A stretch of DNA of 64,000 nt from positions 25,696 to 89,695 of the forward strand of contig NZ_JAVBXD010000016.1 in the NCBI RefSeq assembly GCF_030756675.1. The letters are read 5' to 3'. Shown here piece by piece: positions 27,483 through 37,613 of the stretch. The position numbers and the translations under genes are program-made. Source of the stretch: Bacillus multifaciens. GTDB lineage: Bacteria > Bacillota > Bacilli > Bacillales > Bacillaceae_G. Below the pieces are notes generated by a model that saw only the letters and a list, made by a program, of their open reading frames with translations, did no database searches and was not told the origin of the DNA. Each line of letters opens with the position of its first letter. Position 1 is the first letter of the stretch.

Positions 27483-29210
27483 ATGGAATGGAAAAAAGAA
27501 TATGAACGCTGGATTTCCTTTACAGATTTAGATGCAGAGTTAAAGCAGCAACTAGAAGAAATGCAAAGTGATGAGAAGAAAATTGAAGATAGTTTTTATA
27601 AAAATTTAGAGTTTGGTACAGGCGGTATGCGCGGAGAATTAGGTGCCGGCACAAATCGTTTGAATGTGTATACTGTTCGTAAAGCAACAGAAGGTTTAGC
27701 TCATTTTATTGAAAAGCAAGGCGAAGAAGCAAAAGTACGCGGCGTTGTTGTTGCATACGATTCTCGTCATAAATCTCCAGAGTTTGCAATGGAGGTGGCA
27801 GCAACATTAGGTGCTCACGGTATTAAAACATACGTATTTGAAAGTCTGCGCCCAACACCAGAATTGTCCTTTGCGGTGCGTTATTTACATACGTACAGTG
27901 GTATCGTTCTTACAGCAAGCCATAACCCTCCGGAATATAATGGTTACAAAGTATACGGAGATGATGGGGGACAATTGCCTCCGAAAGAAGCGGATGAGTT
28001 AATTCAATATGTAAATCATGTAAGTGATGAATTGACAGTAGAGGTTGCCGATGTAGAGCAATTGAAACAAAACGGTCTTCTACAGATTATCGGTCAAGAA
28101 GTTGACGATGCATATTTAGAACAATTAAAAACAGTTATTTTGAATAAAGAGCTTGTGAAGGGAATTGGACAAGATTTAAAAATCGTCTTCTCACCTTTAC
28201 ATGGAACATCTAACATTCCGGCTCGCCGCGGATTAGAGGCAGTTGGATTTAAAAATGTAACCGTTGTAAAAGAACAAGAACAGCCAGATCCAGACTTTTC
28301 AACAGTAAAATCACCAAATCCAGAAGAACATGCTGCGTTTGAATTGGCAATTCGATACGGTGAAGAAATTGATGCAGATGTATTAATTGCAACAGATCCA
28401 GATGCGGATCGTCTTGGCGTTGCAGTTCGCAATCATGATGGTGAGTATCAAGTGTTAACAGGAAACCAAACAGGTGCTTTAATGCTAGAATACTTATTAT
28501 CACAAAAGAAAGAACAAGGTATTTTACCAACAAACGGTGTTGTATTAAAAACAATCGTTACATCAGAGTTAGGACGTACAATCGCAAAATCTTACGGACT
28601 TGATACAATTGATACGTTAACTGGCTTTAAATTTATCGGTGAAAAGATTAAGCAATATGAAGCGAGCGGAGAATATGAGTTCCAGTTCGGTTATGAAGAA
28701 AGTTATGGTTATTTAATTCGTCCGTTCTGCCGTGATAAAGATGCGGTACAATCTGTATTATTTGCATGTGAAGTTGCTGCATATTATAAAGCACAAGGTA
28801 AAACATTGTATGATGGTTTACTTGAAGTATTTGAAAAGTACGGATTCTTCCGTGAAGGTCTTGTTTCCTTAACGTTAAAAGGAAAAGACGGAGCAGAACA
28901 AATTCAAACTATGATGACGTCGTTCCGTGAAAATAGACCGACAGAAGTTGCGGGCTTAGAAGTAACGATTGCTGAAGATTATAAAGCAAGCGTTAGAACA
29001 AAAGTAGAAGAAAATGCGACAGAAGAAATCAAATTACCAAAATCAAATGTATTAAAGTATTATTTGGCAGATGGATCTTGGTTCTGCTTACGCCCATCGG
29101 GAACAGAGCCGAAAATCAAGTTTTACTTCGGTGTGCAAGGTGATTCCTTACAACATAGTGAAGAGAAACTTGAAGCGATTAAAAAAGCTATTATGAATCG
29201 AGTACAATAA
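27483..29210 (+). CDS. pgcA: Alpha-phosphoglucomutase
   Basis: 575 residues of the PGM/PMM family. TASHNP (144-149) carries the phosphoserine, ATDPDADRLG is the metal-binding loop, GFKFIGEKI and FGYEESYGYL the sugar-binding loops, and RPSGTEPKIKFYF the phosphate-binding C-terminal loop. It converts glucose-6-phosphate to glucose-1-phosphate, the substrate of GtaB encoded 490 bases downstream. The ATG at 27483 has AGGAG eight bases upstream. Confidence 0.95.
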   Translation: MEWKKEYERWISFTDLDAELKQQLEEMQSDEKKIEDSFYKNLEFGTGGMRGELGAGTNRLNVYTVRKATEGLAHFIEKQGEEAKVRGVVVAYDSRHKSPEFAMEVAATLGAHGIKTYVFESLRPTPELSFAVRYLHTYSGIVLTASHNPPEYNGYKVYGDDGGQLPPKEADELIQYVNHVSDELTVEVADVEQLKQNGLLQIIGQEVDDAYLEQLKTVILNKELVKGIGQDLKIVFSPLHGTSNIPARRGLEAVGFKNVTVVKEQEQPDPDFSTVKSPNPEEHAAFELAIRYGEEIDADVLIATDPDADRLGVAVRNHDGEYQVLTGNQTGALMLEYLLSQKKEQGILPTNGVVLKTIVTSELGRTIAKSYGLDTIDTLTGFKFIGEKIKQYEASGEYEFQFGYEESYGYLIRPFCRDKDAVQSVLFACEVAAYYKAQGKTLYDGLLEVFEKYGFFREGLVSLTLKGKDGAEQIQTMMTSFRENRPTEVAGLEVTIAEDYKASVRTKVEENATEEIKLPKSNVLKYYLADGSWFCLRPSGTEPKIKFYFGVQGDSLQHSEEKLEAIKKAIMNRVQ

Positions 29211-29237
29211 AAAAGGGAGAAATCCCTTTTTTTTTAT
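29208..29237 (+). terminator. Terminator after pgcA
   Basis: AAAAAAGGGAGAAATCCCTTTTTTTTTATT, short stem with a long T run. Confidence 0.8.
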
Positions 29238-35004: not shown

Positions 35005-35066
35005 TTCATTTATGTGAAAAAAGGAAAGTATACAAAAAAATAAAAATAAAACGGGAGCATAAAATA

Positions 35067-37613
35067 ATGAAACAATTAAGGAGTTTATATGGCGTTCTGT
35101 TCTTTTTCATTCCATTCGGGATACTGCTTTTAAGCTATGCTATATTTGGTATGTATCCGTTTGGGAACTATTCAGTATTAATTAGTGATTTAAGCACGCA
35201 ATATGTTCAATTTTATTCTTATTTACATAGTGTATTTACAGAAGGTAAGAGTTTACAATATACAATGGAGTTAGGCGGGGGAATTAACTTTATTGGAACA
35301 TTTGCTTACTATTTATCAAGTCCGTTTTCTCTTCTTCTTTTCTTCTTTAATAAAGCAAACCTTCCGGAATTTATTTTTCTTATTACACTTTTAAAAGTAG
35401 GGTTTGCAGGATTAACATGCGGCTTGTTTTTACGTTATTTGATAGGAAAGCAGCATAAAGGGTTGTTATTGTTTTCAACAGCTTATGCATTATCAGGCTT
35501 TGTTATGGCCTATTCGTTTCATGTAATGTGGCTAGATGGTATTGTATTTCTACCTGTCGTTTTAATGGGAGTTGAAAAACTTTTACGAGATAAAAAGATT
35601 ATTTTCTTTACGGCTGCATTAGCAATTATGTTTATCGCAAATTTCTATATTTCCTTTATGTTTGGGATTTTTACATTCCTTTATTTTATGATTCGACTCT
35701 TTACACAATATGAGTTTCGGGATATAAAAGCATGGGGAAAACATTTTCTTCTTTTCTGCATAGGAACGGGATTAGCTGTTGGAATAGGAGCAGTGATTAT
35801 TCTTCCAACTTTTGAAGCATTAAAGAGTAACCCATATAGTATCAGTTCAACGGAATTCAAATTAGAATGGAAACTTGATTTACTTCTTTTCTATTGGAAG
35901 TTATTATCTGGTGGATATGATTCAAGTTTATTTGGTAATCCGAACGTATATGCATCCACATTAGTACTCGTATTATTACCTTTATTCTTTGTTAATAAAG
36001 AAATTAATAAACGAGAAAAATTCTTATCTATATTTGTATTTCTGTTTTTAATTTGTAGTTTTGCAATTCCATTTTTAAATTTAGCATGGCATGGAAATAA
36101 GTGGCCAAATGCCTATCCATATCGTTTTGCGTTTGTTTTTGTGATGTTAGCTGTTTTTATGGCAGCGCGAGTATTTCAACATATAAGTCGAAAAGATGTA
36201 TTGCCGTTATGGATTAGTTATGGTTTACATCTAATTTTATTGTATGCATTGTCAGTGAAACATTATGAAGTAGTTCATAATAAGATACTTATCATAAACG
36301 CTATCTTTATAACATTTAGTGTTGTCGTATTGCATATTCGTATGATGAAACCATCATTAACAAAAATAACGACAGGATTATTGCTTCTATGTTTAATATG
36401 TGACATAGGGTTTAATACAAGAAAATATATTCATGGACTACATAAAGAAATGGCTTATACAAAGCGTGATGAGTACGAATTGAACAAAGATGCGAAACAA
36501 GCTATTCAATATGTAAATGAAGTTAATGCAGAGCGTTATCGCGTAAGTACTAAATATTCCCGAACGCTAAATGATTCCTTACAATATGATTATCCATCTT
36601 TCCAAACGTTTAACTCGATGGCAAATGGATCATTTCATCGCTTTTTAAAGCTAACGGGCTATTCAACGTCTCCAGACCTTTTAGTATCCAATAACCATGG
36701 TGACACGTTGCTTATGGATGCGATTTTAAAAATTGGATATAAAATTGAAGACGGCAGCGTACCGAAATATGGGCATGAAAAAATAAATCAATTTGGTTTT
36801 GCTAATGTGTTTAAGGTTAACAATATGATTCCATTTGGTTATCCAATCGAACATATACCTTCTAAAGATGAAGAAAATCCATTTGTTTTCCAAGAAAAAT
36901 TGATTAATATAAAAGAAGGAACGTTATTTAAAAAGCTAGAAGATCCAAAGATTTCATTGGAAAATATGGCTGCTATTTCAGGGCAAGAAGGAAAATATGA
37001 ACGAGTTAATAAGGAAAAACCGGGATATATTACGATTCGAGTAAATATACCAAAAGAGGTTCAATTATACGGATTAGCTACAGGGATTGAAAATTGGAAA
37101 GAAATTATGGTGAATGATCAGTATCCGTGTTATTTACCGCCAGATATCGAAAAAACTTTGATTGATTTTGGTTATTTCCCAACAAATGGGATTACGACGA
37201 TGAAGATCAAAGTTGAACAGGAAGATATCTTTTCATTAAAAGGATTACAGTTCTATGGATTAGACATAGACAAGTTTAATGAGACAATAAAAGCATTACA
37301 AAAAAGTAGTATGAAGGTTACTGAAAACTATGGAAAAATGGTGAAAGGGAATATTTCGTTAAAGAATGAAGCTACATTTGTATTCCCGATTCCTTATGAT
37401 GCTGGTTGGTCAGTTACAATCGACGGGAAAGAGCATACTACAACAGCAGTTGTGGATGGATTGCTAGGAGTGAAGGCGGAAGCTGGTAACCATGAAGTGG
37501 TGCTTACTTACCATTCTCCAGGGTTAAAACTTGGAATGATGATTTCCGGTATAAGCATCATCCTTACGATATTGTTTACGATTGTACAGGTAAGAAAGTT
37601 AGGAAAGAAATAG
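35067..37613 (+). CDS. YfhO-family GT-C membrane glycosyltransferase 2
   Basis: 848 residues, clearly homologous to the preceding gene but diverged. The catalytic-loop equivalent is ISDLSTQYVQFYSYL (D41), followed by GGGINFIGTFAYYLSSPFSL. About 13 helices precede a long outer region that ends with PYDAGWSVTIDG and a final helix (about 818-840). The paralogue shows old duplication, and may recognise another acceptor or act with the first one. GGGAGC precedes the ATG. A bidirectional terminator follows. Confidence 0.86.
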   Translation: MKQLRSLYGVLFFFIPFGILLLSYAIFGMYPFGNYSVLISDLSTQYVQFYSYLHSVFTEGKSLQYTMELGGGINFIGTFAYYLSSPFSLLLFFFNKANLPEFIFLITLLKVGFAGLTCGLFLRYLIGKQHKGLLLFSTAYALSGFVMAYSFHVMWLDGIVFLPVVLMGVEKLLRDKKIIFFTAALAIMFIANFYISFMFGIFTFLYFMIRLFTQYEFRDIKAWGKHFLLFCIGTGLAVGIGAVIILPTFEALKSNPYSISSTEFKLEWKLDLLLFYWKLLSGGYDSSLFGNPNVYASTLVLVLLPLFFVNKEINKREKFLSIFVFLFLICSFAIPFLNLAWHGNKWPNAYPYRFAFVFVMLAVFMAARVFQHISRKDVLPLWISYGLHLILLYALSVKHYEVVHNKILIINAIFITFSVVVLHIRMMKPSLTKITTGLLLLCLICDIGFNTRKYIHGLHKEMAYTKRDEYELNKDAKQAIQYVNEVNAERYRVSTKYSRTLNDSLQYDYPSFQTFNSMANGSFHRFLKLTGYSTSPDLLVSNNHGDTLLMDAILKIGYKIEDGSVPKYGHEKINQFGFANVFKVNNMIPFGYPIEHIPSKDEENPFVFQEKLINIKEGTLFKKLEDPKISLENMAAISGQEGKYERVNKEKPGYITIRVNIPKEVQLYGLATGIENWKEIMVNDQYPCYLPPDIEKTLIDFGYFPTNGITTMKIKVEQEDIFSLKGLQFYGLDIDKFNETIKALQKSSMKVTENYGKMVKGNISLKNEATFVFPIPYDAGWSVTIDGKEHTTTAVVDGLLGVKAEAGNHEVVLTYHSPGLKLGMMISGISIILTILFTIVQVRKLGKK

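What the first reader, a model, noticed from the sequence alone, without database searches (positions are those of the whole stretch)
27483..37613. UDP-glucose supply genes next to a GT2-GtrA module serving two giant YfhO GT-C enzymes
pgcA and gtaB make UDP-glucose; then a polyprenyl-phosphate GT2, a GtrA flippase and two diverged YfhO proteins (899 and 848 aa), each with a DLxTQYVQF catalytic loop. In known CsbB/GtcA/YfhO systems one YfhO acts with one GT2. Here one carrier-sugar module precedes two possible outer transferases separated by a terminator. This may be a branched system decorating two acceptors (for example lipoteichoic acid and a second polymer) or two positions.
Basis: partly seen in the sequence, partly recalled or inferred. 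Interest (0 to 1): 0.72.

Follow-up and report, generated by a model that had tools for sequence, protein, structure and literature searches.

The report
Sugar-transfer module with duplicated outer enzyme
This stretch encodes a known type of bacterial machine that carries a sugar across the cell membrane and attaches it to surface molecules, here with two versions of the final enzyme; similar one-supply, two-enzyme arrangements are already known in other bacteria, so it is a modest variation on a familiar theme.

Summary
In detail: pgcA, gtaB, a polyprenyl-phosphate GT2, a GtrA protein and two full-length YfhO proteins (899 and 848 aa), both with the DLxTQYVQF loop. Its premise, one GT2 per outer enzyme, is wrong. 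In S. mutans one GT2 (PgfS) is needed with two membrane proteins (PgfM1, PgfM2) whose family models match these YfhOs. In Listeria 4b one GT2 (GttA) feeds GtlB (LTA) and GttB (WTA), the very branched scheme proposed. A Ruminococcus locus (L035) shows a GT2-GtrA fusion followed by two YfhO genes, the second split over two frames. YfhO1 and YfhO2 are sisters in a 31-row tree lacking other Bacillus chromosomal YfhOs, which suggests an old tandem duplication with a faster second copy. The UDP-glucose link is weak: hairpins also lie after pgcA, gtaB and gtrA, and GT2-GtrA is closest, in the plasmid collection, to Listeria csbB-gtcA, listed for GlcNAc. Most likely an ordinary three-component glycosylation module with a duplicated outer enzyme serving two acceptors or positions. 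Sugar and acceptors are untested. No genome was held for the window and the one genome scan returned no Bacillus, so co-occurrence could not be checked. New member of a known kind.

The parts
27483..29210 (+). pgcA, phosphoglucomutase/phosphomannomutase family (575 aa); probably a neighbour, not part of the module
   Evidence: PF02878/79/80 and PF00408; terminator-like site right after it
29209..29232 (+). terminator-like site after pgcA
   Evidence: pattern scan; little excess over shuffles in that scan
29698..30582 (+). gtaB, UTP--glucose-1-phosphate uridylyltransferase (294 aa)
   Evidence: TIGR01099 408.4 bits, cut-off 326.8
30600..30667 (+). 22-bp inverted repeat (hairpin) between gtaB and GT2, no T-run; unexplained
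   Evidence: no other copy in the window
30699..31727 (+). GT2, CsbB/GtrB-type polyprenyl-phosphate sugar transferase (342 aa, TTG start)
   Evidence: PF00535; 61% to the Listeria GT2 beside gtcA; solved relative sll0501, E 2.5e-105
31740..32162 (+). GtrA-family protein, presumed UndP-sugar flippase (140 aa)
   Evidence: PF04138 E 4.6e-26; 51.9% to Listeria gtcA
   Evidence: z -5.7
32243..34942 (+). yfhO1, presumed GT-C transferase, 899 aa (frame open from 32180)
   Evidence: PF09586 691.7 bits; conserved D47, Q51, W161, D163, Y200, R359
34950..34999 (+). terminator-like hairpin between yfhO1 and yfhO2
   Evidence: z -5.4
35067..37613 (+). yfhO2, presumed GT-C transferase, 848 aa; faster-diverging paralogue
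   Evidence: PF09586 584.1 bits; conserved D41, Q45, W155, D157, Y194, R353; sister of yfhO1 with a longer branch
37619..37652 (.). hairpin between the convergent yfhO2 and the minus-strand Wzy_C gene, A-run before and T-run after
   Evidence: z -5.3

Best explanation
This is a CsbB/GtcA/YfhO-type three-component transmembrane glycosylation module with a duplicated outer enzyme. Inferred mechanism: the GT2 puts one sugar (GlcNAc most likely, glucose next) on undecaprenyl phosphate, GtrA flips it, and YfhO1 and YfhO2 draw on the same pool and each transfer the sugar to an extracytoplasmic acceptor. The two YfhOs probably arose by an old tandem duplication, and YfhO2 diverged towards another acceptor or another position. 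Shown by sequence: gene content, family membership, retained conserved residues, sister relation in the sampled tree, hairpins. Inferred: enzymatic activity, sugar, flipping, sharing of one pool, acceptors.
For: Families and near full-length matches. In the plasmid collection GT2 and GtrA match best the Listeria pair beside rho, annotated gtcA for the second (61% and 52%). No second GT2 or GtrA match at E 1e-5 among window ORFs of 80 aa or more. Both YfhOs keep residues most conserved in 28 relatives: D47/D41 and Q51/Q45 (27 of 28 each), W161/W155 and D163/D157 (26 of 28 each), Y200/Y194 and R359/R353 (28 of 28 each). Sisters with support 100/99 in a 31-row tree, end branches 0.66 and 1.42. 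Parallel architecture: locus L035 (Ruminococcus flavefaciens MAG) has a GT2-GtrA fusion, then a YfhO, then a second YfhO split over two frames. A GtrA-YfhO fusion in L120 ties those two partners. Precedents for one supply and two outer enzymes: Listeria 4b; S. mutans. Of 28 genomes with a YfhO match among 398 of another phylum, 5 had at least two separate YfhO genes over the cut-off (only two candidates per genome were scored); in 2 of those 5 only one near-full-length GT2 of this type was found (drafts).
Against: No sugar, acceptor or activity was tested. The tree holds no other Bacillus chromosomal YfhO and has several long branches, so the duplication may look closer than it is. Two acceptors is not proved by divergence: the ectodomain divergence of the pair (29% against 48% in the core) lies within the family trend (z -1.2 among 435 pairs). 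Hairpins may split the genes into separate transcripts. No solved relative of YfhO was found and no model could be made. Tandem YfhO genes were seen in 0 of 28 neighbourhoods of the other phylum and in 3 of the 37 loci, so the arrangement is uncommon there. In 3 of the 5 genomes with several YfhOs two GT2s of this type were found.
Confidence: 0.7

Rival explanations
1. Sequential or joint action as in S. mutans Pgf: YfhO1 adds the first sugar, YfhO2 extends it or finishes the same chain, perhaps on surface proteins rather than teichoic acids.
For: Best NCBIfam models are PgfS (326.8 bits), PgfM2 and PgfM1 for the three proteins. In S. mutans both PgfM1 and PgfM2 are needed, loss of PgfM2 gives a partly modified product, and a putative terminator precedes pgfM2.
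Against: All scores are far below the equivalog cut-offs (500, 1500, 1400). All 7 other GT2 and YfhO proteins that I gave (Listeria, Priestia, E. faecalis contigs, a Clostridia MAG) also hit these models first, so the name carries little weight. No epimerase gene lies between the parts.
Confidence: 0.2
2. YfhO2 belongs with another GT2 encoded elsewhere in the genome (a second three-component system) and lies here only because it arose by tandem duplication.
For: Genomes can hold several GT2s of this type: the L. monocytogenes record W01 has 7 places matching the GT2 query, 2 of them over nearly its full length, and 3 of 5 other genomes had two. Terminator-like hairpin before yfhO2.
Against: No direct data: the window's genome is not held.
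Confidence: 0.2
3. YfhO2 is a redundant or decaying copy without its own role.
For: Faster divergence in both parts: YfhO1 is nearer than YfhO2 to 23 of 28 relatives in the core and to 27 of 28 in the ectodomain. YfhO2 departs from 5 of 44 conserved columns (V164, S297, M360, V584, I588), YfhO1 from none.
Against: Intact 848-codon frame; 39 of 44 conserved columns kept, the first-loop D and Q and the MWLD motif among them.
Confidence: 0.1
4. The module moves glucose supplied by its neighbours pgcA and gtaB.
For: Adjacency; the GT2's best solved relative is sll0501 (355 bits), a GtrB that uses UDP-glucose by recall.
Against: Closer to the Listeria GT2 beside gtcA (452 bits; 61%), which I take for CsbB/GlcNAc; hairpins after pgcA and gtaB; in Listeria record W01 a gtaB-like gene lies beside the only yfhO found, and Listeria YfhO (Lmo1079) serves GlcNAc on WTA.
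Confidence: 0.35

Closest known systems
CsbB/GtcA/YfhO three-component system (B. subtilis, S. aureus LTA; L. monocytogenes 1/2a WTA)
   Same: GT2 of CsbB type, GtrA flippase and YfhO protein; the GT2-GtrA pair matches best the Listeria pair in the plasmid collection
   Different: GT2, GtrA and YfhO all at one place here, with two YfhOs; in Listeria record W01 the GT2-gtcA pair and yfhO lie far apart
GttA feeding GtlB (LTA) and GttB (WTA), L. monocytogenes serovar 4b
   Same: One UndP-sugar pool, two outer transferases for two polymers (the authors' model, supported by deletions)
   Different: The outer enzymes are not YfhO proteins (PMT-2 or no domain in the review's table); gttB is beside gttA but gtlB is elsewhere; the sugar is galactose
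Pgf system of S. mutans (pgfS-pgfM1-pgfE-pgfM2)
   Same: One GT2 and two homologous large membrane proteins in one cluster, a putative terminator before the second
   Different: Equivalog cut-offs not reached, no epimerase here, GtrA gene present here; Pgf acts on surface proteins; the paper calls PgfM1 a PMT-2 protein
GtsABC of B. anthracis
   Same: GT2, GtrA and GT-C decorating a wall polymer in the same genus
   Different: GtsC is listed as PMT-2 and the genes as BAS5285-5287 in the review's tables; both outer proteins here match YfhO

Membership tests
CsbB/GtcA/YfhO three-component system | GT2 of the polyprenyl-phosphate type (GT-A domain plus C-terminal membrane helices) | tested here: met
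   PF00535; residues 12-313 of 342 align with sll0501, and nearly the full length with Listeria GT2s, DxD and C-terminal region included. Helices themselves were not predicted
CsbB/GtcA/YfhO three-component system | GtrA-family flippase | tested here: met
   PF04138 91.7 bits, cut-off 26.1; 51.9% to GtcA
CsbB/GtcA/YfhO three-component system | YfhO-family outer transferase with the conserved first-loop motif | tested here: met
   PF09586 twice, nearly full length; D-x3-Q kept in both
CsbB/GtcA/YfhO three-component system | GT-C fold of YfhO | tested here: inconclusive
   No solved relative by sequence or profile; structure prediction switched off
CsbB/GtcA/YfhO three-component system | Sugar transfer from UndP-sugar to a surface polymer | not testable with these tools
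   Needs mutants and glycan analysis
Pgf (S. mutans) | PgfS, PgfM1 and PgfM2 equivalog scores | tested here: not met
   PgfS 326.8 of 500; PgfM2 295.7 and 262.9 of 1500; PgfM1 267.3 and 232 of 1400
Pgf (S. mutans) | pgfE epimerase between the membrane proteins | tested here: not met
   No such ORF between 30699 and 37613
GtsABC (B. anthracis) | PMT-2 type GT-C enzyme | tested here: not met
   Both outer proteins match PF09586 only at E 0.001; GtsC listed as PMT-2

The most novel reading that the evidence does not exclude
The two paralogous YfhO enzymes work one after the other or as a pair on one UndP-sugar pool to build a short glycan, possibly on surface proteins: a Bacillus counterpart of the streptococcal Pgf pathway that arose by an independent duplication.
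Probability: 0.15. Interest if true: 0.55.

Novelty: new member of a known kind. Interest (0 to 1): 0.3.

Why it matters
What decides the acceptor of a YfhO enzyme is open: the authors who found YfhO's role in B. subtilis state that the polymer modified cannot easily be predicted from homology alone (PMC5836110, passages). Two sister YfhOs beside one supply module in one cell offer a clean comparison in which sugar, carrier and flippase are probably shared and only the outer enzyme differs. Otherwise the locus is an ordinary member of a studied class.

Tried and rejected
The genome-contig scan with YfhO2 gave 37 loci, 33 of 37 titled Ruminococcus, best-segment identity 24-34%, none Bacillus; that this collection lacks the B. 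cereus group is inferred from this. Viral-contig scans with YfhO2 and YfhO1 gave no relative. Protein searches of plasmids with YfhO gave 8 and 10 records, the only Bacillaceae one being Priestia. Megablast of the 10-kb stretch: no match in plasmids; in phages one 201-base match covering 2% of the query, inside gtaB. Rfam at gathering scores: nothing in 27000-42600. Promoter scan: 55 found against 62.7 expected by chance, so not used. Ectodomain divergence as evidence for a new acceptor: rejected, within the family trend. PgfS/PgfM names: rejected as membership, because other YfhO and GT2 proteins hit the same models. Hairpin 30600-30667 as a repeat element: only its own two arms match in the window, no plasmid match.

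Papers: 10 searches used. 'YfhO + Bacillus cereus + glycosyltransferase' gave 0 papers. 'YfhO + anthracis' gave 4: of PMC8035078 and PMC11081497 I saw passages, of the other two only the listing; the passages seen do not speak of this locus. One search was too broad: the 30 papers listed of 5,752 hold no YfhO. This says nothing of papers outside the held library. The paper on GtsABC is not held; what I say of it comes from passages of PMC8035078.
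Full report
What is there. The window carries pgcA (27483-29210), gtaB (29698-30582), a GT2 gene (30699-31727), gtrA (31740-32162), yfhO1 (32243-34942, 899 aa) and yfhO2 (35067-37613, 848 aa), all on the plus strand in intact frames. Pfam and NCBIfam confirm the families; GtaB passes the galU cut-off, and both YfhOs match nearly the whole PF09586 profile.

Transcription units. The sequence shows four hairpins inside the stretch and one at its end: after pgcA (29209-29232), after gtaB (22-base arms 30600-30621 and 30646-30667, no T-run), after gtrA (32160-32202), after yfhO1 (34950-34999) and after yfhO2 (37619-37652). 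The last four each fold better than all of 200 shuffles (z -5.3 to -5.7). The first rests on a pattern scan whose 12 terminator-like sites barely exceed chance (8.6, sd 3.1). So pgcA and gtaB need not be one unit, and YfhO1 is no more tightly tied to the GT2-GtrA pair than YfhO2 is to YfhO1. In S. mutans a putative terminator precedes pgfM2, yet RT-PCR showed co-transcription (PMC5856776 section 5), so hairpins alone do not settle it. The promoter scan found no excess over chance.

The carrier-sugar module. In the plasmid collection the best match of the GT2 is a Listeria monocytogenes protein with 61% identity, directly followed by a gene annotated gtcA and preceded by rho. The window's GtrA is 52% identical to that GtcA. 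The review PMC8035078 (passages) lists Listeria CsbB (Lmo2550) with GtcA (Lmo2549) and YfhO (Lmo1079) for GlcNAc on WTA; that the fetched pair is lmo2550-lmo2549 is my inference from the adjacency. A second Listeria GT2 is 43-44% identical. The best solved relative is sll0501 (355 bits), a UDP-glucose enzyme by recall. GlcNAc is therefore a little more likely than glucose, but identity does not prove the sugar. In the Listeria record W01 (2.9 Mb) one GtrA and one YfhO were found, and a gtaB-like gene lies divergently beside the yfhO. If that yfhO is lmo1079, as seems likely, gtaB next to yfhO occurs where the YfhO serves GlcNAc, which weakens the glucose argument. Among 14 named control genomes YfhO was found in 3, B. 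subtilis among them, and GtrA in 7.

The two YfhOs. They are 35% identical: 48% in the first 370 residues and about 30% in the later half. In a tree of 31 rows (two of them nearly identical, one being the record labelled E. coli) they are sisters with support 100/99 and end branches 0.66 and 1.42. No other Bacillus chromosomal YfhO could be included, only a distant Priestia plasmid copy; the root is by midpoint and some rows have long branches, so 'tandem duplication' is likely but not dated. Of 44 columns conserved in at least 85% of 28 relatives, YfhO2 differs in 5 and YfhO1 in none. D47/D41 and Q51/Q45 of the first loop are kept in 27 of 28; the exception is the L. fermentum row, where the alignment shows no motif. 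The MWLD aspartate is kept in 26 of 28, being absent in the Listeria and Priestia rows. The greater divergence of the ectodomain in this pair is what the family trend predicts (z -1.2 among 435 pairs) and is no separate evidence for a new acceptor.

How usual is it? In 398 genomes of the phylum of a Ruminococcus centre, 28 had a YfhO match and 25 passed the cut-off. I fetched 28 stretches from 23 of those 28 genomes; the 5 left out had partial or weak matches. By my count, a GT2 lies within 1.1 kb of YfhO in 11 of 28 stretches; GT2, GtrA and YfhO are together in 6 of 28 (within those 11); a GT2 lies further off or scores weakly in 5 of 28; none was found in 12 of 28 (some stretches end at a contig edge); a tandem second YfhO in 0 of 28. 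One of the 28, L120, encodes a GtrA-YfhO fusion. Five of the 28 genomes have at least two separate YfhO genes (G001, G208, G294, G338, G398, where only two candidates a genome were scored; an earlier search saw a third YfhO place in G001, whose neighbourhood I did not count). Near-full-length GT2s of this type number 2, 1, 2, 2 and 1 there. So fewer GT2s than YfhOs occurs in some of these drafts and equal numbers in others.

Tandem YfhOs elsewhere. Among the 37 loci (some of them short contigs), 3 show neighbouring YfhO genes. L001 and L002 hold a pair with no GT2 or GtrA found nearby; the L001 pair is again a sister pair. L035, a R. flavefaciens MAG, holds a frame with both a GT2 and a GtrA domain, then a full YfhO, then, 1.2 kb on, a second YfhO split over two frames. 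That is the closest match to the window's architecture that I found. A Priestia megaterium plasmid carries GT2-GtrA-YfhO as a compact cassette, plus YfhO fragments.

Known precedents. In S. mutans all four pgf genes are needed; loss of PgfM1 abolishes and loss of PgfM2 truncates the modification (PMC5856776: abstract and sections 5 and 10). The NCBIfam models of these proteins are the best hits of the window proteins but far under their cut-offs, and the same holds for the 7 other YfhO and GT2 proteins that I gave. In Listeria 4b GttA makes one UndP-galactose pool that, in the authors' model, GttB puts on WTA and GtlB on LTA, with deletion data for each (PMC7155027: abstract and passages). GtsABC of B. 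anthracis is a different set: its GT-C protein is listed as PMT-2 and its genes as BAS5285-5287 (PMC8035078).

Mechanism and verdict. Best reading: a three-component glycosylation module with two outer enzymes drawing on one pool (0.7 for the whole statement; two distinct acceptors or positions about 0.45, by judgement). In B. subtilis, CsbB overexpressed without YfhO traps UndP-GlcNAc and starves the carrier pool (PMC11081497 and PMC11898649: passages), which gives a simple test of whether the two YfhOs share a pool. The finding is real and tidy but ordinary in kind. Interest 0.3.

Noticed in passing
window 37638-41643 (- strand): Three genes convergent with yfhO2: a Wzy_C ligase/polymerase protein, a GT4 glycosyltransferase and a MurJ-family flippase; looks like a separate polysaccharide module.
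   Followed up: partly
window 30600-30667: Strong 22-bp hairpin without T-run between gtaB and the GT2; only its own arms match in the window, no plasmid match. Role unknown.
   Followed up: partly
L120 7975-11010 (- strand): One 1011-aa frame holds a GtrA domain (residues 15-133) followed by a full YfhO (153-981): a fused flippase and outer transferase.
   Followed up: partly
L035 4649-13197: A 372-aa frame with GT2 and GtrA domains, then a full YfhO, then a second YfhO split over two frames, in a Ruminococcus flavefaciens MAG. Described only.
   Followed up: partly
L054 6351-10390 (NZ_CP151786.1): Priestia megaterium plasmid carries a GT2-GtrA-YfhO cassette, and elsewhere on the record YfhO pieces, one with an inner stop.
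   Followed up: partly
L001 7089-12853, L002 7077-12853: Tandem YfhO pairs in two Clostridia MAG loci with no GT2 or GtrA found nearby; the L001 pair is a sister pair in the tree.
   Followed up: partly
L062 9908-12475 (OL539428.1): A record labelled E. coli plasmid holds a YfhO nearly identical to one from an E. faecalis contig, near Tn554 genes; probably mislabelled or misassembled Gram-positive DNA.
   Followed up: no
YfhO family alignment (YfhO1 D47, Q51): A D-x3-Q motif in the first loop is kept in 27 of 28 relatives; a candidate catalytic site for a family in which earlier authors found such residues difficult to predict (PMC5836110, passages).
   Followed up: partly
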